A stretch of DNA of 63,115 bases from Lachnospiraceae bacterium (lineage in GTDB: Bacteria > Bacillota > Clostridia > Lachnospirales > Lachnospiraceae), in assembly GCA_017478245.1 (NCBI GenBank), contig JAFVDW010000047.1:1-63115 (forward strand). The letters are read 5' to 3'. How positions within the stretch are numbered: position 1 is the first letter of the stretch; the number at the start of each line of letters is the position of its first letter. The position numbers and the translations under genes were made by a program. Positions 3,450 to 55,199 of this stretch are shown one piece after another. The notes under the pieces are model-generated. The model did not search any database. It worked only from the letters and a program-made list of their open reading frames with translations, and was not told where the DNA came from.

Positions 3450-4229
3450 ATGGCACAGGGAAAAGTTGAAATCTGTGGAGTGAACACCGCAAAGCTCCCA
3501 CTGTTAAAAGCAGCAGAAAAGGAGGCTTTGTTCGCACGCATTGAAGAAGGGGATACGCTCGCCAGAGAACAATATATAGAAGGAAATCTCCGCCTTGTTC
3601 TAAGCGTCATCAAGCGTTTTTCCTCCAGCAGCGAAAATGTGGATGATTTATTTCAGATTGGCTGTATCGGACTGATCAAAGCCATCGACAATTTTGACTC
3701 ATCCCTCAATGTAAAATTCTCTACTTACGCGGTTCCCATGATCATCGGGGAGATCAGAAGGTTCTTACGGGACAACAGCTCCATCAGAGTATCCCGTTCC
3801 TTGAAGGATACAGCGTACAAAGCCATCTATGCCCGTGATACCCTCACCCGTCAGAATCTTCGCGAGCCTACTCTGGAGGAGATCGCCAAGGAGGTCGGCA
3901 TCTCCAAGGAGGATATCGTCTACGCCATGGATGCCATACAGAATCCCATGAGCCTCTACGAGCCCATTTACACGGACGGAGGCGATACGTTATATGTGAT
4001 GGATCAGATTTCAGACAAAAAAAATAAGGAAGAGACCTGGGTGGAACATCTCTCCCTAAGCGAAGCTATGAAAAAACTAAATCCCCGAGAACACGAAATC
4101 ATCTCTCTGCGGTTCTTTGAAGGCAAAACCCAGATGGAAGTCGCACAGTATATCGGTATCTCACAGGCACAGGTATCTCGTCTGGAAAAAAACGCACTCC
4201 GCACCATGCGCAGCTATCTGACTGCATAA
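3450..4229 (+). CDS. sigG: RNA polymerase sporulation sigma factor SigG
   Basis: The 259-residue protein starts with the SigG-specific segment 'KVEICGVNT' followed by 'KLPLLK'. It has sigma-70 regions 2 ('NVDDLFQIGCIGLIKAIDNF'), 3 and 4, with a C-terminal helix-turn-helix around 'QYIGISQAQVSRLEKNAL'. SigG directs late forespore transcription after engulfment. The ATG has AGGAGG six bases before it. Unlike its neighbours sigE, ylmC and nrdR it lies on the plus strand, whereas sigE-sigG are usually tandem. Its own sigma-G type promoter lies upstream. It converges on a small minus-strand ORF whose stop is 4 bases past the sigG stop. Confidence 0.97.
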   Translation: MAQGKVEICGVNTAKLPLLKAAEKEALFARIEEGDTLAREQYIEGNLRLVLSVIKRFSSSSENVDDLFQIGCIGLIKAIDNFDSSLNVKFSTYAVPMIIGEIRRFLRDNSSIRVSRSLKDTAYKAIYARDTLTRQNLREPTLEEIAKEVGISKEDIVYAMDAIQNPMSLYEPIYTDGGDTLYVMDQISDKKNKEETWVEHLSLSEAMKKLNPREHEIISLRFFEGKTQMEVAQYIGISQAQVSRLEKNALRTMRSYLTA

Positions 4230-4233
4230 CCGT

Positions 4234-4398
4234 TCAAGCTATCTCGGATGCCATACAGACTCCGTATTCCAGGTTCTGCCCGTCCAGCAGCTCCTGCATG
4301 CGGTCTATGGCATCTTCCTCATTATCTGCGAACAAAATTGTCTTTTGAATCTCTGTCTGCATGTCCTCTGACAGTGCAATCACTTCGTACATTTGCAT
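4234..4398 (-). CDS. Small 54-residue ORF overlapping the vanZ-like gene end
   Basis: A short frame starts ATG-CAA-ATG at 4398 with AGGAAG just upstream and ends in TGA at 4234-4236. The product is acidic and probably helical ('DMQTEIQKT', 'DNEEDAIDRMQELLDG') and I do not recognise it. Its first 77 bases lie inside the end of the vanZ-like gene in another frame, a short overlap consistent with translational coupling. It could be a chance frame. The Shine-Dalgarno match and the tidy fit between the vanZ-like and sigG stops argue for a gene. Confidence 0.45.
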   Translation of the reverse strand: MQMYEVIALSEDMQTEIQKTILFADNEEDAIDRMQELLDGQNLEYGVCMASEIA

Positions 4399-4927
4399 AG
4401 TGCTTCCTTTTCATCCTCCACCCGTATCCAATGCCAAAAATACATGCACCGATCAACGCTCCCAACGTATTGGTCAGCACATCATCAATCTGAAAATATC
4501 CCCGTCCGGTGAGCAACTGCAAGCCTTCAATCAACAGACTGCTTAACATTCCCGCAAAAGTAGCCCGGAACACATTCCGCATAGGCTTTACATTCCATGC
4601 CAGCAAATAGCCATATGGAACAAACAGGAGTACATTCTCTATCACAAAAGCATGCGTCCTTCTTGTTCTCCCCCATGTGGAAAACAGCTCCATATCCACC
4701 TTGCGCACTCTGCTTCCCAATTCACGAGACAAGAAAGTAATACAAAGCACCACCACCACATACACTACCAGACAGGAAATCGCCACCACGGGTAAAGGTT
4801 CCTCCCCCCTTCTGCGCCTGCCCCTATTAAACATACCAAGAATAGCCGCCACAAGAATACCCGGTATCAATCCATAGGAAAGATACCGGAACACGCCCAG
4901 CACATCTCTGACTATATATTGAACCAT
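4322..4927 (-). CDS. VanZ family membrane protein
   Basis: The 201-residue protein has about four membrane helices and the VanZ signature segments: 'ENVLLFVPYGYLL' (about residues 97-109) and 'IEGLQLLTGRGYFQIDDVLTN' near residue 133, followed by a glycine-rich helix. VanZ relatives are associated with low-level teicoplanin resistance, but most chromosomal copies have no tested function. The last ~28 residues are charged and encoded where the small ORF overlaps, so the tail is less certain. It sits in the sigE-sigG interval, where it is not usually found. Confidence 0.85.
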   Translation of the reverse strand: MVQYIVRDVLGVFRYLSYGLIPGILVAAILGMFNRGRRRRGEEPLPVVAISCLVVYVVVVLCITFLSRELGSRVRKVDMELFSTWGRTRRTHAFVIENVLLFVPYGYLLAWNVKPMRNVFRATFAGMLSSLLIEGLQLLTGRGYFQIDDVLTNTLGALIGACIFGIGYGWRMKRKHYANVRSDCTVRGHADRDSKDNFVRR

Positions 4928-4963
4928 AAATTATTTTCTCCAACGTAAGTAATTAAATAATCC

Positions 4964-5275
4964 TCAGCTTAAAGAATAGCTGTCCCAATTTGCAGATGCC
5001 CTGCTCCATCTATCCTTGTCTTCAAACAATCGATCATTCATCCAGGCAACTGCATCCACCACGCCGTCCTCATCAAATTCAAAAAAAACACTGCTCTTGG
5101 ATTCCTCCGGCGTTTTAAAAAAGTTAAAGGGCTCCGGCCAGACTGTTACCTTCAGCTTTTTGTTGCCCTCCTCATCACTGGCACTCTCCAGACGATATCT
5201 CATCCCCTGATGGGAACCTGTATATTCGCTTTTTTTCAGATATTCCATCGATAATATATCTTCACGCTTTATCAT
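4964..5275 (-). CDS. Conserved hypothetical protein, 103 residues
   Basis: This soluble protein of about 103 residues is rich in charged and aromatic amino acids ('YTGSHQGMRYRLE', 'VTVWPEPFNFFKTPEE', 'AVAWMNDRLFEDKDRW'). The pattern recalls a small family I have seen in Lachnospiraceae genomes without a known function; I cannot name a domain. The ATG at 5275 was preferred over the GTG one codon earlier. A TATAAT at about 5357-5362 could serve it, but I see no good -35. It lies between sigE and the vanZ-like gene, all on minus. Confidence 0.7.
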   Translation of the reverse strand: MIKREDILSMEYLKKSEYTGSHQGMRYRLESASDEEGNKKLKVTVWPEPFNFFKTPEESKSSVFFEFDEDGVVDAVAWMNDRLFEDKDRWSRASANWDSYSLS

Positions 5276-5386
5276 CACATTATTCCATCACGTCTATATT
5301 TGTATTTCACTTCCATCTCACAGCATATTGTGAACTGCCAGACGGCTTGCGCCTATTATATAACAGATTTATCCCAAAAGTAAAGG

Positions 5387-6124
5387 TCAAATATGCAGAC
5401 TCATCTCCTTTTTTAGCTGACGCATAATCTTCTTTTCCAGTCTCGAAATGTATGATTGGGAAATTCCGAGATAATTTGCCACTTCCTTCTGTGTCATCTC
5501 CTGACCGTCCCTTGTGCCCAATCCAAAACGCAGCCGGATAATCGTCCGCTCTCTATCAGACAGCTTTTCAATCGCTCCCTCCAACACTTTCCTTTCTGCT
5601 TCATTCTCCAGATCCCGATATATCACATCCTCATCTGTTCCCAGTATATCGGACAAAAGCAGCTCGTTACCATCCCAATCCACATTCAACGGTTCGTCGA
5701 TGGACACTTCCAGACGCGTTTTATTGTTCCGGCGAAGATAGATCAAAATCTCATTTTCAATACAGCGGGATGCGTAGGTAGCAATCTTGATATTTTTATC
5801 CGGTTTGAAGGTATTGATGGACTTTATCAGCCCAATGGTTCCAATAGAGATCAGATCCTCCACCCCCACACCGGTATTATCAAATTTCTTGGCTATGTAG
5901 ACCACCAGACGAAGATTATGCTCAATCAGGATGGATTTTGCTTCATCTTCATATTCTGTCCCCAGATCGTTTATGACCTGATTCTCCTTGGTGGGTTCCA
6001 AGGTCGGCGGCAACACCTCTGCTCCTCCGATATAATGAATATCGCCTCTTCGCCCAAAAAGCCCTCCCTCTCTACAAATCATTTTTAATTGCATTTTACC
6101 CGGCATTGCCATCTTTATAATCAT
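5387..6124 (-). CDS. sigE: RNA polymerase sporulation sigma factor SigE precursor
   Basis: This is a 245-residue sigma factor. The N-terminal ~30 residues form the pro-sequence. The segment '[14 protein letters not shown]' aligns with the B. subtilis pro-sigma-E cleavage region, placing the SpoIIGA cut near H30/Y31. Regions 2 ('[20 protein letters not shown]'), 3 and 4 ('[19 protein letters not shown]') follow. SigE runs early mother-cell transcription. It starts 16 bases after spoIIGA on the same strand, so protease and substrate are co-transcribed. Several in-frame ATGs (6124, 6112, 6106) make the exact start uncertain; none has a strong ribosome site. Confidence 0.96.
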
Positions 6125-6140
6125 TTCTTATCACGCCTTT

Positions 6141-6968
6141 CTACCCACGCAACAAAAGCTGTGGGTTCACAATCATTCTCACATCTCCACTCTCCTTTGA
6201 ACCACATAAATCTTCTTCGCTGACCGCAACATAAATGTTCTTACACATTTTTCTCACACCTTCCACTTCAATCCAAATCTCCGGCAGGATATATCCTTTC
6301 AAGATGCCGTTTTTTTTGCCAATACTGTGGTAAGGTATTGCGCGATATAAGGGTTCCCTTTCTCCGTAAAGTTCTTCAAACATCTTTTGCTCAATAATGG
6401 AAACCGGCTCTCCGCTGATGGGCTCCACCAGACTGTTTCCCGAATCAATCAGTCCATTCACAATCATCTTCACATCCTGATTGATAAGCGTGGCTTTGCA
6501 TATGTATTGCTGCTTCTCCCGCTTTTCCCGAAAGGAGCAAAACCCCAAAACCAACAACGCTCCCACCAAAAGAACAGCAAACATTCCGACAGTCAATCCC
6601 GGCACATTTGCCAGCTTGCGCATAATGAACAGCAGCCCGCCTCCCAGAAAAAAAGAAAAGAGTAGCATCTTTTCACAAATTTTCAAAAAGGCTTTCACTG
6701 TTCGAACCCGAAAAGCAATTTTAACCATCAGAACTGTCCCCATCACAATCCCCAACAGGCTGTCCGCCCACGGTGGGAAAGCGCGTAAAATGGGCAATCT
6801 GTTACAGACAAATGGCAGCACATACATGCCTGCTCCCACCGCTGCTCCGGCAATCAGTCTTATGCGCGTGGCAGTGCGCATACTACTACTATTTACCAAA
6901 AGCAACAAGTATAGGTTCATAACAAAATTAATAAAAAAAAGACTGTCTACATAAAGTTCATAATACAT
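6141..6968 (-). CDS. spoIIGA: Sporulation sigma-E factor-processing peptidase SpoIIGA
   Basis: The N-terminal half (about 150 residues) has five hydrophobic helices, beginning 'YYELYVDSLFFINF'. The C-terminal half carries the aspartic-protease motif 'GLIDSGNSLVEP' with the predicted catalytic Asp, and ends 'NPQLLLRG'. SpoIIGA sits in the sporulation septum and removes the SigE pro-sequence after a signal from SpoIIR. I start the gene at the ATG at 6968. An upstream in-frame start at 7076 would place the promoter and Spo0A site inside the coding region and add residues not typical of the family. The length is 275 residues. Confidence 0.93.
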   Translation of the reverse strand: MYYELYVDSLFFINFVMNLYLLLLVNSSSMRTATRIRLIAGAAVGAGMYVLPFVCNRLPILRAFPPWADSLLGIVMGTVLMVKIAFRVRTVKAFLKICEKMLLFSFFLGGGLLFIMRKLANVPGLTVGMFAVLLVGALLVLGFCSFREKREKQQYICKATLINQDVKMIVNGLIDSGNSLVEPISGEPVSIIEQKMFEELYGEREPLYRAIPYHSIGKKNGILKGYILPEIWIEVEGVRKMCKNIYVAVSEEDLCGSKESGDVRMIVNPQLLLRG

Positions 6969-50098: not shown

Positions 50099-51361
50099 CT
50101 AATTCTTCAACGGGTCCTTGTAAAATTCTACGAATTCCTCGTAGCCTTCCTTTGTCAACTGCTCCTTCTGGAACTTTTTATTCTTGTTCATGCGTGCCAC
50201 CAATATCTGTGCACCTTCCCTGCGCGCCTCCTGTGCCTGCGCGATCACCTTACACAGTGCCTCACCAGCCACGCCCTTCTCAATCAGATAAGCAATTTTT
50301 TTCGGACTGGCAGGTACCTGAAAACCGCTTTCCATCAGCAACAGGATAATACGCTCAAATCCAATGGAGAAGCCACATGCCGGCACATCCTTACCGGTGA
50401 ACTTGCCCACCATTTTATCATACCTGCCACCGCCACCGCAGCTTCCGCCAAACTCAGGCATAGCAATTTCAAAAATGGTTCCTGTATAGTAAGACATACC
50501 GCGCACCAGTGTCGCATCAAATACAATTTCAAAATCTGAAGCTTTCGTAGCGCTCACACTATCCATAATCTCTTCCAAATTTTCTGCCACATCCGGCTCC
50601 AGGAACTCACCCAGGGTATCCGCCAAATACTGCACGCCATTCTCCGCCTGCTCCAAACCTTTGAACAGATTCAGATATCTGTCTACAGCTTCCTTCGCAA
50701 ACCCATTCTCCAAAAGCTCTGCTTCCACGCCGGCAAGCCCAATCTTGTCCATTTTATCCAAGGTAATGAACACACTGTCATAGGCTGCTTCCGCGAAACC
50801 GCTATATGCCGCCATCGCCTTTAAAATGCGTCTCTCATTGATACGAATCTGGAAGTTCTTAAAACCCAGCTTGCCCAAAGTAGTGGTAGTCGCCAGAATC
50901 AGCTCAATCTCTGCCAGATTGGAGGGCTCTCCCAAAATATCAATATCACATTGCATAAACTGACGGTATCTGCCCCTCTGGGGTCTGTCCGCTCTCCACA
51001 CATTGCCCATCTGTAATGCCTTAAAGGGACTGGGCAATACTGCCGCATTGTTGGAATAATAGCGCACCAACGGAACCGTCAGGTCATAGCGCAGACCCGA
51101 ATCTACCACTTCCTCCTCCGTGGCAGCCGCCTCCACATTCAACTTCTCTCCGCGCTTTAAGATTTTAAAAATCAATTTCTCATTGTCGCCGCCCTGTTTA
51201 TTGGTCAAGTTCGCAATATTCTCCACACAGGGAGTCTCAATGGATGTAAATCCAAACTTTCCGTAGGTTTCCTTAATCACGCCTATGACATAATCGCGAA
51301 TCTGCATCTCCTGGGGCAAAATATCCTTCATACCTGTAGTCGGTTTCTTACTAAGTGCCAT
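50099..51361 (-). CDS. hisS: Histidyl-tRNA synthetase
   Basis: The 420-residue class II synthetase begins 'MALSKKPTTGMKDILP' and has motif 2 'GNVWRADRPQRGRYRQFMQCDID', the HisRS signature 'LVRGMSYYTG' and motif 3 'GFSIGFERI', with a C-terminal anticodon domain. The ATG at 51361 has GAGGAG six bases before it. A good promoter stands right upstream, and no T-box leader is seen. hisS normally follows hemZ in Clostridia; here two plus-strand genes separate them. Confidence 0.96.
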   Translation of the reverse strand: MALSKKPTTGMKDILPQEMQIRDYVIGVIKETYGKFGFTSIETPCVENIANLTNKQGGDNEKLIFKILKRGEKLNVEAAATEEEVVDSGLRYDLTVPLVRYYSNNAAVLPSPFKALQMGNVWRADRPQRGRYRQFMQCDIDILGEPSNLAEIELILATTTTLGKLGFKNFQIRINERRILKAMAAYSGFAEAAYDSVFITLDKMDKIGLAGVEAELLENGFAKEAVDRYLNLFKGLEQAENGVQYLADTLGEFLEPDVAENLEEIMDSVSATKASDFEIVFDATLVRGMSYYTGTIFEIAMPEFGGSCGGGGRYDKMVGKFTGKDVPACGFSIGFERIILLLMESGFQVPASPKKIAYLIEKGVAGEALCKVIAQAQEARREGAQILVARMNKNKKFQKEQLTKEGYEEFVEFYKDPLKN

Positions 51362-51399
51362 TTTTTTCTCCTCGTTTTCCTTGTCTATCAACCACACTC

Positions 51400-51428
51400 A
51401 TTTTACTGATTCTTTCGCACGATGTCAA
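51400..51428 (-). promoter_or_regulatory. Sigma-A type promoter of hisS
   Basis: TTGACA (51423-51428) and TAAAAT (51400-51405) are 17 bases apart on minus, about 40 bases before the hisS ATG. It supplies hisS with its own transcription now that hemZ is not directly upstream. Confidence 0.8.
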
Positions 51429-51481
51429 GGTCTTGCGCAAACAGAAATAAACTCAAAAGCAACTCTCGCCACATACCATCG

Positions 51482-51539
51482 TGTATCCAAAAAGGATACA
51501 AAATTTTAATACATGAAAACGAAATTAAATTTATGTATT
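51482..51539. repeat. Two inverted repeats before the unknown plus-strand pair
   Basis: TGTATCC and GGATACA (51482-51488, 51494-51500) form a perfect 7-bp dyad around AAAAA. A second dyad, AATACAT and ATGTATT, spans 51508-51539. They lie 30-90 bases before the predicted -10 of the following gene, whose product has an XRE-like N-terminus, so they may be operators. Confidence 0.5.
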
Positions 51540-51571
51540 CAAAATGTGGGGTATTATTATATAAATCCTAA

Positions 51572-51580
51572 TGATATACT
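51572..51580 (+). promoter_or_regulatory. Extended -10 promoter of the unknown pair
   Basis: TGA directly before TATACT (51575-51580) gives an extended -10 on plus, 24 bases before the ATG at 51605, with AGGAGG at 51591-51596. No clear -35 is present. Confidence 0.5.
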
Positions 51581-51604
51581 GTGTATGAAAAGGAGGAAAA
51601 CACT

Positions 51605-53002
51605 ATGTTTCATATTGCAGACAACAAAGAAATCGGGTCATATTTAGACAAACTTATAATCCAAAAGTATACATACTATAGTCATTTTTGCAGAAGTTAC
51701 CTGGAAGCTGACGGCAAGACTGCGGATAATGTAGAGGTAAGAAATATGAGTAGACGCCTGTCCGGAATCATTCATGGACACAAGACCATACAGCTTTACG
51801 ACCTACCCATCTTTACAAAGTTGCTTGATGTGACCTGCGAGGATATTTTAAGCGCCGGAAAAAAAGCACTCCCGGTCACCAACAGACTTACCAACTATAT
51901 GATTGCAGCTTCAAAGGATGCGACGCTATGGGAACAATATATGCACACTGACGAGAGTTTAATCTTAAATTATGATGAATATGGGAAAAATATTTTAGAT
52001 TATATCATTAAGTTCAAAAATTATGACTTATTCAGATACTTAATAGATCATCATTATATTTGGCTGGTAGACGAGGCATGTGACAATTTTGCAAGAAAAA
52101 ACGGTGGATTCAGTTTTGCACCGGGCACAAGCATTAAGAGAAGAGATCTCTATACACAAGAGTTCCTCCATGTTGAATTCCGTGATTTCCATGAAGACGA
52201 TCACTCCAGGCACACTTTCTCTGCAAGGGTTGCGGAAACCGGTTTTGACAACATGATAAATGACGTTGTAAAGAATGACAGCTATCGAAGAAATTCCATT
52301 ATACTCGCCATCGAAAACGACGATATTGACATGCTGACCCGACTGCGCGCAAGAGAAGTCCTCTTATTGCATCAGGCAAATTATTATGTCAACACTTTTC
52401 TTGACGAACAGCCCTATGACAAAGCCATGTTGGAGCATATCGCCAACGCCTCCTGGCAGGTTTTAGATTATTTCACGGAGGAGTTTGAGGTTCCGGATGC
52501 ATTTGGAAACAATAACCCCTTTATGTTTCCCTACATAGAAATATTAATACAATTATTAGCGAAAAAAAATATTGATTACTTAGAAACGGTAATCACCCGG
52601 GCAATCAAGCATAACGAAAATGCTTATGATAAACTAAAAGAATTGCTTGACAAATCCATTGATTTTTTGGGAGATAGCTATCCCCAATTAGAATTAACAA
52701 AGGATATAAACTTACGAGAAAAACTTATGAGGGATGCTGCCCAAAACCTTTCCATCAAAACTGTAAGCAATTCGAGTAAACAGTCCATCAAAAATGTAAG
52801 CAATTCGAGTAAACAGTCCTTGATAGAATGGCATATAGTAAGCTTCAGGATGATATATCGTAATCCCTACGATGGTATCGTCACAAACATTATCCGCACA
52901 GACTGCGAGACATCAAGTCCTCGCATCACGAAGCTACTCAATGAGTTGAATGCTTCCTACGAAAGAATTTGCGCCATAAAACCACAATCAACTGAGAAAT
53001 AA
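51605..53002 (+). CDS. Unknown protein with XRE-like N-terminus and ankyrin-like segment
   Basis: I do not recognise this 465-residue protein as a named family. Residues ~8-86 resemble an enlarged XRE/Cro helix-turn-helix domain, ending 'LLDVTCEDILSAGK' as XRE domains do. Residues ~118-155 read like an ankyrin repeat ('DEYGKNILDYIIKFKNYDLF' then 'YLIDHH'). The middle is helical and charged, without membrane segments. Residues 383-404 are a tandem 11-residue repeat from a 33-base DNA duplication. The ATG has AGGAGG eight bases before it. The gene is on plus, A+T-rich and set between hemZ and hisS, which suggests an acquired cargo gene. It is followed after 20 bases by a membrane protein gene, probably in one operon. 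Confidence 0.85.
   Translation: MFHIADNKEIGSYLDKLIIQKYTYYSHFCRSYLEADGKTADNVEVRNMSRRLSGIIHGHKTIQLYDLPIFTKLLDVTCEDILSAGKKALPVTNRLTNYMIAASKDATLWEQYMHTDESLILNYDEYGKNILDYIIKFKNYDLFRYLIDHHYIWLVDEACDNFARKNGGFSFAPGTSIKRRDLYTQEFLHVEFRDFHEDDHSRHTFSARVAETGFDNMINDVVKNDSYRRNSIILAIENDDIDMLTRLRAREVLLLHQANYYVNTFLDEQPYDKAMLEHIANASWQVLDYFTEEFEVPDAFGNNNPFMFPYIEILIQLLAKKNIDYLETVITRAIKHNENAYDKLKELLDKSIDFLGDSYPQLELTKDINLREKLMRDAAQNLSIKTVSNSSKQSIKNVSNSSKQSLIEWHIVSFRMIYRNPYDGIVTNIIRTDCETSSPRITKLLNELNASYERICAIKPQSTEK
52751..52816 (+). repeat. Tandem 33-base repeat inside the unknown gene
   Basis: Units 52751-52783 and 52784-52816 differ at one base of 33 (ACT versus AAT). They encode 'SIKTVSNSSKQ' and 'SIKNVSNSSKQ'. 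The near identity implies a recent in-frame duplication or slippage site. Confidence 0.9.
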
Positions 53003-53022
53003 CAAAAGAAGGAGCGTTGCAC

Positions 53023-53640
53023 ATGGAATCTAACGACATCAAAGTACTGCAAAACAAAATGCTATCCTTAAAAATAAATCTGATAATCAACAACATTATA
53101 ACCATCCTGTTAGTGTTGGCAATGATAATGCTGGCAATCTCATCCCATACAACTCCTCTGCGAAAAAATCGCTCTGCAACCCAAAGACTGACAGAGCTCA
53201 CCAACGCAATCCTGGACAGTTGTTGCCAAGTGGAGGACTGCGGAAATATGATTATTGCGGTATGGAATAACTCCATTTACAACAAAGAAGCCGCCAATAC
53301 TGATATGTACACCAGAGAGGACAACGGAACCGGTGCATTCTATGAAGACTTTAATGATGCTTTAGATAACCTGTTTCTCGACCCGGAGTTTGCCGGACAA
53401 ATAGATGCTATCAGGCTCCAACAACAAAACATTATCGCGCTGATGCGAGAAATGAATGATTTACAGGAAAACAATCAAGAAGTCTATGATGATTTAAAGA
53501 ACTATTATGAATGCTATATGCAATTTGCAGATATGGTGGTGCATCCCACCGGCAGCCTGAGTTCATTTTCTTCTGATTTTGATGAAGCAGATGAAAATAC
53601 AGTGCGCTATTATCGCAACATAATCCTATATACGGAATGA
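53023..53640 (+). CDS. Unknown single-pass membrane protein
   Basis: The 205-residue protein has one strong membrane helix at about residues 18-40 ('INLIINNIITILLVLAMIML') near its N-terminus, then ~165 mostly helical, acidic residues with four Cys ('LDSCCQVEDCG', 'YYECYM'). There is no signal-peptidase site; it looks like an anchored helical sensor-like or scaffold domain. The ATG at 53023 has AAGGAG eight bases upstream, 20 bases after the preceding unknown gene. No family is recognised. It ends 77 bases before the converging hemZ, with a hairpin between. Confidence 0.8.
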   Translation: MESNDIKVLQNKMLSLKINLIINNIITILLVLAMIMLAISSHTTPLRKNRSATQRLTELTNAILDSCCQVEDCGNMIIAVWNNSIYNKEAANTDMYTREDNGTGAFYEDFNDALDNLFLDPEFAGQIDAIRLQQQNIIALMREMNDLQENNQEVYDDLKNYYECYMQFADMVVHPTGSLSSFSSDFDEADENTVRYYRNIILYTE

Positions 53641-53661
53641 TACTTCCCAGACACTTAAAAG

Positions 53662-53703
53662 CCCTGCGCAACATGCTTCCACCATATCACATGCTGCGCA
53701 GGG
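53662..53703. terminator. Hairpin between the unknown pair and hemZ
   Basis: Arms 53662-53675 and 53690-53703 pair over 14 positions with one mismatch and a 14-base loop. There is little T after the stem on either strand. Its place between two converging genes fits a bidirectional terminator. Confidence 0.6.
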
Positions 53704-53717
53704 TATCTGCATCTGCA

Positions 53718-55199
53718 CTAAGCAAACAGTGTCCTCTTTCTCTCAAGCATCTCATCAATGCGTTCTATGTACTGTGCGATTTCCTTCACATTCTCACAGC
53801 GTTCAATCAACACGCTCTCCTCACCGTTCTCCGCAATCTGTCTGCTGACCTTCTTGGTGATACTTCCTGCGCCCAACGCCACAATCGTCTGCATTTCCTC
53901 CATGATGAGAATGTTGTAAAGTCCCAGCTTACCTTCCTGGGCATAGCCCACATTCTCAAAATTACCCGACATGTTCTTCTGACGATAGAGGTAGTAAGGC
54001 ACCAACCCAAGACGCTTTGCTCCCTCCGCCGCAAGTTCCATGGTTTCATCGGTGTTGTGCAGTGTGGCAACGCCATGCTCCTGAATCCACTGACTAAGCC
54101 TGGATGCCCGTTTGATTGCCAGGGAATGCACTGTCAGACTATCCGGGGCAAGCTTCACCACCTCTTCTACCGTATAGCGCACATCCTCTTCCATCTCTCC
54201 CGGCAGCCCCAGAATCAAATCCATATTGATGTTGTCAAAGCCCACCTCTCTTGCCAGCGCATAAGCCTCCCTAACCTGCTCCACACTTGCCTTACGTCCA
54301 ATGATTTCCAATGTTTTTTGATTCATAGTCTGCGGATTTACAGAGATACGACTGATACCATGCCGTTTTAACACTTCCAGCTTCTCTCTGGTGATGCTGT
54401 CCGCCCTGCCCGCCTCCACGGTGAATTCTTTCACCATAGAAAAATCAAATAACTCCTTCAGCCTTGTAAGCAATCTGTCTAATTGTTCTGCTTCCAGGGT
54501 GGTCGGCGTTCCCCCTCCCACATAGACACTGTCCAAAATCTTATCTGCAAATGCCTCTGCTGTGTATTCCATCTCCCGAATCAGGCAGTCGATGTAACTG
54601 TCCACAATCTTTCTATGGGCTGCAATGGGATAGGAGGTAAAGGAGCAATACAGACAGGTCGTAGGGCAAAAGGGAATTCCAAGATAGAGACTATAGCCTC
54701 CTTCATAATGTACGCCCTCTAACAGCTTTCGCTCTCTCTTCGCAATCTCAATAGAAAGCTTTGCCTTCTCCTCACTGACATAATGCTCTCTTTGATAAAA
54801 TTCCAGAATCTCCTCATCTGACTTTCCGCTTTCCAACATGCTGTATGCAATCTTCGTGGGACGAATACCGGTCAGATTCCCCCACGGCAGCTTTCTACCG
54901 GTAACCTCACACAAGGTTCGATACAGGAAACGCTTAAAGCCATCCTTAAATTTCCCTTCAGCAGCATCGTAAATCCATGTAAAATGTTGTTCCCCCAACT
55001 CGATCACTGCCCCCGGATTCGGTGCTTCTTTATCATCGACGATGTTTATCGTCATCCTCACTGCACCCTGTGCCTTGCTTCGCTTCTCTATTCCGGTCTC
55101 CGGTGTCAGCACCGTTACAGTCTCTCCGGGATAAAAGGCACGCACAATGGCATTCACATCGTATTCAAAATTTACTTTATTGATATCTATTGCAAACAT
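53718..55199 (-). CDS. hemZ: Radical SAM coproporphyrinogen dehydrogenase-like protein HemZ
   Basis: The 493-residue protein has a HemN-like radical SAM core with 'CPTTCLYCSFTSYP' (CxxxCxxC), 'VYVGGGTPTTLEAEQLDRLL' and 'INMDLILGLPGE'. It is preceded by a ~160-residue N-terminal region typical of HemZ. HemZ-type proteins are annotated as oxygen-independent coproporphyrinogen III oxidases, although this activity is not proven for all. I start it at the ATG at 55199; a GTG six codons upstream is possible. In the usual clostridial order it leads into hisS. Confidence 0.92.
   Translation of the reverse strand: MFAIDINKVNFEYDVNAIVRAFYPGETVTVLTPETGIEKRSKAQGAVRMTINIVDDKEAPNPGAVIELGEQHFTWIYDAAEGKFKDGFKRFLYRTLCEVTGRKLPWGNLTGIRPTKIAYSMLESGKSDEEILEFYQREHYVSEEKAKLSIEIAKRERKLLEGVHYEGGYSLYLGIPFCPTTCLYCSFTSYPIAAHRKIVDSYIDCLIREMEYTAEAFADKILDSVYVGGGTPTTLEAEQLDRLLTRLKELFDFSMVKEFTVEAGRADSITREKLEVLKRHGISRISVNPQTMNQKTLEIIGRKASVEQVREAYALAREVGFDNINMDLILGLPGEMEEDVRYTVEEVVKLAPDSLTVHSLAIKRASRLSQWIQEHGVATLHNTDETMELAAEGAKRLGLVPYYLYRQKNMSGNFENVGYAQEGKLGLYNILIMEEMQTIVALGAGSITKKVSRQIAENGEESVLIERCENVKEIAQYIERIDEMLERKRTLFA

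What the first reader, a model, noticed from the sequence alone, without database searches (positions are those of the whole stretch)
51405..53717. Unknown two-gene unit set between hemZ and hisS on the opposite strand
apt-relA-MBL-hemZ-hisS is normally one same-strand run in Clostridia. Here two plus-strand, visibly A+T-richer genes sit inside it (bases 52561-52620 hold 20 G/C of 60). The first encodes an XRE-like plus ankyrin-like protein, the second a one-pass membrane protein with a helical Cys-containing domain. They have their own promoter, dyads upstream and a hairpin after. A DNA-binding or peptide-sensing protein paired with an anchored partner could be a signalling, immunity or defence unit. 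This is the best candidate here for an undescribed system. The function is not derivable from sequence alone.
Basis: partly seen in the sequence, partly recalled or inferred. Interest (0 to 1): 0.75.

Follow-up and report, generated by a model that had tools for sequence, protein, structure and literature searches.

The report
Self-regulating ankyrin switch with membrane partner
A gut bacterium carries a small optional gene pair in which a DNA-binding ankyrin protein probably controls mainly its own operon through a palindromic DNA site kept in many relatives, while the second gene, a membrane protein, is one of several interchangeable partners.

Summary
The two plus-strand genes are real: P1 (51605-53002, 465 aa) and P2 (53023-53640, 205 aa), A+T-rich, between hisS and hemZ. 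The premise of a conserved hemZ-hisS run fails: hisS lies directly behind hemZ in 5 of 40 same-genus loci.

P1 matches no curated family above threshold. A contig search gave 93 relatives, mostly Clostridia among the 80 kept. P1 has a divergent XRE-type helix-turn-helix (hhalign probability 91.5, 33 columns) and weak ankyrin similarity. A 7+5+7-nt palindrome lies about 120 nt upstream (window 51482-51500). It is perfect in 27 of 50 upstream regions, against 0.2 in shuffles; in four of nine scanned genomes the only perfect copy lies before P1. P1 is probably a local autoregulator.

P2's relatives mostly carry zinc ribbons; the window copy lacks them. The five P2-type genes found in 101 genus genomes lie behind P1, a P1 remnant or a P1-like gene, but 11 of 13 P1 genomes lack an intact P2. 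Other P1 genes precede acidic miniproteins (42 of 83 loci) or lipoproteins. Most likely: a regulator with exchangeable outputs; signal and output function are unknown.

The parts
51605..53002 (+). P1, 465 aa: XRE-type HTH (about residues 1-85), ankyrin-like stretch (about 93-149), middle part and conserved C-terminal part
51752..51778 (+). segment RRLSGIIHG (residues 50-58), presumed recognition helix; family consensus about NRLSQIxKG
52751..52819 (+). 33-nt tandem repeat (2.1 copies) inside P1, in a stretch where the alignment is mostly gaps in relatives
51482..51500 (.). box 1, presumed P1 operator: TGTATCC-AAAAA-GGATACA
51521..51540 (.). approximate place of a degenerate second box (right part ATGTATTC); inferred from relatives
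51572..51580 (+). possible extended -10 (TGATATACT) of the P1 promoter; read by eye, not found by the consensus scan
   Evidence: one search lists no plus-strand promoter-like site here
53023..53640 (+). P2, 205 aa: short N-terminus, one membrane segment (residues 21-39), conserved C-terminal domain; lacks the zinc ribbons of its relatives
53661..53704 (.). hairpin between the convergent ends of P2 and hemZ, possible terminator on either strand

Best explanation
P1-P2 is an accessory two-gene operon. P1 is a one-component regulator: its N-terminal XRE-type helix-turn-helix binds the palindrome at 51482-51500 and a weaker second box nearer the promoter, and controls mainly its own operon. Its ankyrin-like part would receive the signal, a ligand or protein. 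P2 is the co-transcribed output at the membrane: a single-pass protein with a C-terminal domain that I place outside the cell. In other lineages the output gene is instead an acidic miniprotein of about 60 aa or a lipoprotein. Shown by sequence: the palindrome, its position and conservation, the HTH similarity, the operon layout, the partner classes. Inferred: DNA binding itself, activation versus repression, the sensing role of the ankyrin part, P2 topology and its role as output.
For: Box 1: a perfect 7+5+7 palindrome starts at -137 to -115 in 27 of 50 upstream regions (window included), at least 6 of 7 pairs in 38 of 50; 50 dinucleotide shuffles gave means of 0.2 (max 1) and 3.5 (max 7). 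N-terminal profile (35 of the 51 aligned relatives) against 19 XRE domains collected from fetched loci: probability 91.5, P 8.5e-7; control profile of P2 relatives 1.1. Box core and presumed recognition helix change together: symmetric CAC cores have F52 in 8 of 10, TGC cores in 0 of 23; TGG (2 rows) and TCC (window) occur with E54 and G54 instead of the usual Q54. The region between box 1 and the promoter shares the core: 8 of 9 CAC loci hold TACAC/GTGTA (shuffles 2.2, max 6), 15 of 24 TGC loci hold TATGC/GCATA (shuffles 7.9, max 14). Local control: in four of nine scanned genomes (G040, G072, G205, G254) the only perfect copy of TATATGC-N5-GCATATA lies before P1; in the window's genome the one other perfect copy of its own box lies inside a 1006-residue open frame. 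Partner genes start within 600 nt behind P1 in 56 of 83 loci: acidic miniproteins 30 + 12, lipoproteins 7 + 4, P2-type 4, one locus having two kinds.
Against: The covariation is mostly one clade, so it is not many independent events; L219 (E54 with TGC), L217 and L224 (A54 with CAC), L159 and L231 (CAC without F52) do not fit. 13 of 51 upstream regions show no box of 6 or more pairs at that place. In 6 of 24 TGC loci the second region holds the other core, TACAC/GTGTA, more than shuffles (1.3, max 4). The HTH match covers only 33 columns (recognition helix onward), and the XRE profile drew in no P1 member in any of four rounds; with only two XRE sequences the probability was 14.6. The N-terminal profile's best PDB hits were designed armadillo repeats (E 0.0013). 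G205 has eight further one-mismatch sites, none in the control, which contains CG and so may be biased low; G239 has no site. 27 of 83 P1 loci have no recognised partner, three of these having under 200 nt downstream. No structure could be predicted. Nothing ties P2 physically to P1.
Confidence: 0.55

Rival explanations
1. A toxin-antitoxin or other addiction-like module: P1 is an XRE antitoxin that neutralises P2 and represses the operon through the palindrome.
For: Two-gene operon, a palindrome that appears to serve the operon alone, patchy distribution (13 of 101 genus genomes), decay of either partner in some loci (L052/L160, L072), exchange of the partner.
Against: P1 is large and comes first; the commonest partners are very acidic (median net charge -13), unlike known toxins (recalled). 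27 of 83 P1 loci have no recognised partner, and none of the 13 other family genomes with a P2-type gene has a P1 match. No toxin match of note in PADLOC, Pfam or NCBIfam.
Confidence: 0.17
2. P2 senses an outside signal and passes it to P1 at the membrane, as an anchored co-sensor or sequestering partner; P1 is the response part.
For: All five P2-type genes found in 101 genus genomes sit behind P1, a P1 remnant or a P1-like gene; P2 relatives carry zinc ribbons ahead of the membrane segment that could contact P1.
Against: The window P2 lacks the ribbons, leaving about 20 residues before the membrane segment. Lipoproteins and miniproteins take P2's place elsewhere, and such partners also occur beside nucleotidyltransferase-like genes without P1.
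Confidence: 0.17
3. The palindrome is an RNA hairpin or terminator, not an operator, and P1 is a cytoplasmic ankyrin protein with another role.
For: It folds as RNA (-7.7 kcal/mol) and the terminator scan reports it.
Against: Spacing from the start codon, 5-nt spacer and half-site are kept while most copies show no T-run behind them, by eye; matching half-site cores lie downstream; the core changes with the HTH.
Confidence: 0.08

Closest known systems
RRNPP(A) regulators (Rgg, PlcR, ComR, NprR, PrgX)
   Same: N-terminal XRE-type HTH, 250-500 aa, repeat-type C-terminal part, in many loci a small gene directly behind, palindromic upstream site (the operator comparison is recalled)
   Different: ankyrin-like rather than TPR repeats; the partner is an acidic miniprotein without an evident signal peptide, a lipoprotein or a membrane protein; no pheromone shown
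Type II toxin-antitoxin operons with XRE antitoxins (such as HigBA; recalled)
   Same: two genes, presumed autoregulation, patchy, partner exchange
   Different: the regulator is the large first gene; no toxin family matched
Double zinc-ribbon membrane proteins (Pfam DZR PF12773; PHROG 24226 and 4852)
   Same: P2's membrane segment and C-terminal domain align with relatives that carry these ribbons
   Different: window P2 lacks the ribbons; in viral contig L237 the relative sits between structural genes (by eye); in other genera no P1 was found with it
Ankyrin repeat proteins (Pfam Ank_2)
   Same: 13 of 18 P1 proteins match Ank_2 at E up to 0.1, best 1.4e-6
   Different: window member is below the curated cutoff; HTH attached

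Membership tests
RRNPP(A) quorum-sensing receptors | receptor 250-500 aa | tested here: met
   465 aa; criterion from passages of PMC10075063
RRNPP(A) quorum-sensing receptors | TPR repeats in the receptor | tested here: not met
   no TPR family among the Pfam matches of P1 or of the 18 proteins of A1; ankyrin families instead
RRNPP(A) quorum-sensing receptors | adjacent gene for a small (10-100 aa) secreted propeptide | tested here: not met
   the window neighbour is a 205-aa membrane protein; the miniproteins of relatives show no hydrophobic signal, judged by eye only
XRE-type (Cro/C1) DNA-binding proteins | XRE helix-turn-helix in the sequence | tested here: inconclusive
   hhalign probability 91.5 over residues 50-82 only; XRE profile drew in no P1 member; Pfam HTH models hit few members
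XRE-type (Cro/C1) DNA-binding proteins | binds a palindromic operator | not testable with these tools
   conserved palindrome found; binding not assayed
Ankyrin repeat family (Pfam Ank_2) | score above the curated cutoff | tested here: not met
   23.3 bits against 27.3 for the window protein
Type II toxin-antitoxin | toxin gene of a known toxin family | tested here: not met
   P2: no Pfam, NCBIfam or PADLOC match of note
Type II toxin-antitoxin | toxicity of one partner neutralised by the other | not testable with these tools
   needs expression in a laboratory strain
Known anti-phage defence systems (PADLOC-DB 2.0.0) | match to a listed protein model | tested here: not met
   0 families for P1 and P2 at E up to 1
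Double zinc-ribbon membrane proteins (the P2 group) | homologous membrane segment and C-terminal domain | tested here: met
   21-33% identity to 11 relatives, with invariant W81, Y96, T97, D109, F110, N111 among others
Double zinc-ribbon membrane proteins (the P2 group) | N-terminal zinc ribbons | tested here: not met
   Zn_ribbon_3 and DZR each match 10 of the 12 aligned proteins, the window member none; the other exception, L074, starts at the contig end

The most novel reading that the evidence does not exclude
An undescribed modular signalling or conflict system of Clostridia: an XRE-ankyrin switch, or in some loci a nucleotidyltransferase-like protein, drives interchangeable outputs (acidic miniproteins, lipoproteins, zinc-ribbon membrane proteins), with regulator and operator specificity changing between lineages. 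Locus L073 has a P1-like gene, a nucleotidyltransferase-like gene, a P2-type gene and a miniprotein in a row.
Probability: 0.3. Interest if true: 0.75.

Novelty: new variant of a known kind. Interest (0 to 1): 0.5.

Why it matters
It turns two uncharacterised genes into a testable regulator-operator pair, points to a protein family spread over gut and rumen Clostridia, and suggests that ankyrin-like repeats can take the place that TPR repeats hold in Gram-positive one-component regulators. The exchange of acidic miniproteins, lipoproteins and membrane proteins behind one regulator is the kind of pattern seen in signalling and conflict modules.

Tried and rejected
P1 relatives in viral contigs: none confirmed; none in phage or plasmid records. 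P2: none in phage records at E 1e-5, one in viral contigs; plasmids were not searched for P2. The first contig search with the single P1 protein found no relative. Rfam: nothing in the window at gathering thresholds. PDB by sequence: nothing convincing for P1, nor for one nucleotidyltransferase-like and one P1-like protein. Pfam gave no nucleotidyltransferase match, so that name rests on a motif I recall (GS...DxD). A regulon in the window's own genome: 177 places at up to 3 mismatches against 109 for the reversed control, but only two perfect copies, the second in an open frame, and the one-mismatch pair at C50 also in one, so no regulon is claimed. The XRE set gave no sequence at first (hhalign step failed), then two (probability 14.6), then 19. 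The P1 box was not found before the two divergent P1-like genes; by eye they have other palindromes. L190 fell into the P2 cluster, as I read it through its zinc ribbons only: the window P2 had no blastp hit in L055, the same contig, so I count 4 P2-type loci, not 5. Outputs 17 and 33 were cut in the middle, so I did not see every neighbourhood; counts come. The tblastn list was cut at the 20 best rows, which all fell in L072 and L073; weaker hits elsewhere are not excluded. Three of the 13 other family genomes with P2-type genes (G186, G270, G392) were not fetched with wide flanks. Literature: searches; two returned no paper, and in the others I saw titles and abstract starts, none of which describes this family. 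Of PMC9765709 and PMC10075063 I saw passages only; the counts there give no occurrence of ankyrin in their main texts.
Full report
What is there. P1 (51605-53002) and P2 (53023-53640) are two plus-strand ORFs 20 nt apart. They lie between hisS and hemZ, both on the minus strand and both named by NCBIfam. P1 and P2 have 38.6% and 39.8% G+C against 47.8% for each neighbour. One genome of the window's genus (G040) has its P1 on a contig of 239840 bases at the same place as the contig of Acetatifactor muris DSM 23669, so the host is probably a relative of Acetatifactor.

The site. Of 101 genomes of the genus, 88 had a hemZ match. I fetched the DNA behind hemZ for 40 of those 88. hisS started within 250 nt in 5, 902-5867 nt behind in 9, and was not in the stretch in 26, four of which are cut by contig ends. 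The interposed genes are diverse. The site is thus variable, and the insertion alone is not a signal.

P1 family. The protein gives only sub-threshold ankyrin matches; of the 18 proteins of A1, 13 match Ank_2 at E up to 0.1. P1 occurs in 13 of 101 genus genomes and 9 of 299 family genomes, own genome included in both, two of the nine being weak. A profile search of genome contigs gave 93 relatives, 80 kept, titled mostly Lachnospiraceae, Oscillospiraceae and other Clostridia, with single records titled Muribaculum and Mollicutes. Viral contigs, phages and plasmids gave none. I aligned 50 of the 80 loci with the window (A2); the other 30 were left out as not starting at residue 1, cut by a contig end, or close to one already included. 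Identity to the window is 30-43%.

HTH. A profile of 35 N-termini out of those 51 (A4) against 19 XRE domains gathered from fetched loci gave probability 91.5 over residues 50-82; P2 relatives as control gave 1.1. The match starts at the presumed recognition helix and leaves the first helices unaligned; the XRE profile itself drew in no P1 member in four rounds. Pfam alone is weak: HTH_26 and HTH_3 each in 2 of 35. The PDB profile search gave designed armadillo repeats first (E 0.0013), which I read as helical-repeat noise.

Operator. Upstream of P1 most loci share a palindrome with 7-nt arms and a 5-nt spacer, start about -120. Of 50 regions with 200 nt (one of 51 was shorter), 27 hold a perfect copy starting -137 to -115 and 38 at least 6 of 7 pairs; shuffles gave 0.2 and 3.5; the same search at other positions gave 0-3 perfect. 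Even spacers gave at most 1 perfect and odd ones fall off on both sides of 5, as expected for one centre. The loci are related, so they are not independent draws. The window has TGTATCC-AAAAA-GGATACA. The core varies: TGC in 23 symmetric cases, CAC 10, TGG 2, TCC 1 (window), besides 5 asymmetric ones. Residue 52 is F in 8 of 10 CAC and 0 of 23 TGC rows; residue 54 departs from Q in the TGG rows and the window, but also in L219 (TGC) and in L217 and L224 (CAC). The tree groups most CAC rows (4 changes of label, shuffled mean 10.3), so this is supporting, not decisive. The region nearer the promoter tends to share the core: TACAC/GTGTA in 8 of 9 CAC loci (200 shuffles: mean 2.2, max 6), TATGC/GCATA in 15 of 24 TGC loci (7.9, max 14); against this, 6 of 24 TGC loci hold TACAC/GTGTA (1.3, max 4).

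Local control. A scan of nine genomes at up to one mismatch found the perfect box only before P1 in four (G040, G072, G205, G254) and a one-mismatch copy before P1 in four more (G069, G089, G027, G159); G239 had none. Further one-mismatch sites number 0-3 per genome except G205, which has eight. In the window's genome the only other perfect copy of its own box is inside a 1006-residue open frame.

P2 and partners. P2 relatives occur in 5 of 101 genus and 14 of 299 family genomes, own included. In the genus all five lie behind P1 or something like it: G000 and G089 intact pairs; G093 a P1 frame with a different C-terminus and a 50-residue P2 remnant; G064 a piece of the C-terminal end of P1 just upstream, best E 1e-5; G096 a divergent P1-like gene (E 5.6e-5), then a nucleotidyltransferase-like gene, P2 and a miniprotein. 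L236, a P1 cut by the contig end, also has a P2-type gene behind it. 11 of the 13 P1 genomes of the genus have no intact P2. None of the 13 other family genomes with a P2-type gene has a P1 match at E 0.001. Zinc ribbons match 10 of 12 aligned P2-type proteins and not the window's. A relative in viral contig L237 lies among phage structural genes (gene identities by eye).

Among 83 P1 loci (80 plus L060, L065 and the window), genes starting within 600 nt behind P1 fall into these clusters: miniprotein A 30, miniprotein B 12, lipoproteins 7 and 4, P2-type 4 after dropping L190, one of them (L160) a remnant; one locus (L183) has two kinds; 27 loci have none, three with under 200 nt downstream. 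Near-identical genomes are counted apart, so the counts are not independent. The miniproteins are very acidic (median net charge -13). Of the 11 rows with a CAC left half, 8 have miniprotein B, 1 miniprotein A, 2 none.

Miniprotein A occurs in 9 of 101 genus and 10 of 299 family genomes, one of the ten marginal at E 0.0099. These searches gave 20 loci for 19 genes (L265 and L266 are pieces of one). Seven of the 19 have a clear P1, one a P1 remnant (L258), two a divergent P1-like gene (L269 at E 2e-5; G096 as above), four a nucleotidyltransferase-like gene without P1 (L260, L262, L265, L274), and five nothing I recognise. L262 has a lipoprotein that by eye is of the family behind P1 in L060 and L177.

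Reading. The palindrome and its position are the strongest facts: P1 very likely regulates its own operon. Because partners of several kinds take the same place, and some of them also occur without P1, I favour partners as outputs over partners as P1 ligands. Whether the operon is for signalling, envelope adaptation, toxin-antitoxin action or defence is open.

Comparison. RRNPP receptors resemble P1 in layout; TPR repeats and a secreted propeptide, which PMC10075063 lists as criteria (passages), were tested and not met. P1 may work like one; it is not filed as one. No listed title or abstract start in the paper searches described an XRE-ankyrin regulator family of this kind.

Noticed in passing
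L073 (G096:C1), 3767-6499: Row of four genes: divergent P1-like, nucleotidyltransferase-like (GS...DxD motif, recalled), P2-type with zinc ribbons, acidic miniprotein.
   Followed up: partly
L260, L262, L265, L274: Acidic miniprotein A beside a nucleotidyltransferase-like gene without P1; in L262 a lipoprotein follows, in L260 a zinc-ribbon membrane protein lies between; in L274 a terminase-like gene (by eye) lies upstream.
   Followed up: partly
L237, 4695-5561: P2-type gene in a predicted viral contig, placed among structural genes just ahead of a long tape-measure-like gene (by eye), as a moron would be.
   Followed up: no
window 51361-53718 and L117-L156: DNA behind hemZ differs greatly between species of the genus; possible rearrangement or insertion hot spot.
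   Followed up: partly
window 52751-52819: 33-nt tandem repeat inside P1, at a place where most relatives have a gap.
   Followed up: no
L269 and L073, upstream of the P1-like genes: Other palindromes (GTCAAATTTGAC; GACAAC-AAAA-GTTGTC type) in place of the P1 box, seen by eye.
   Followed up: no
G205: Eight one-mismatch copies of the box besides the perfect one before P1, against none for the reversed control; could be a wider regulon in that genome.
   Followed up: no
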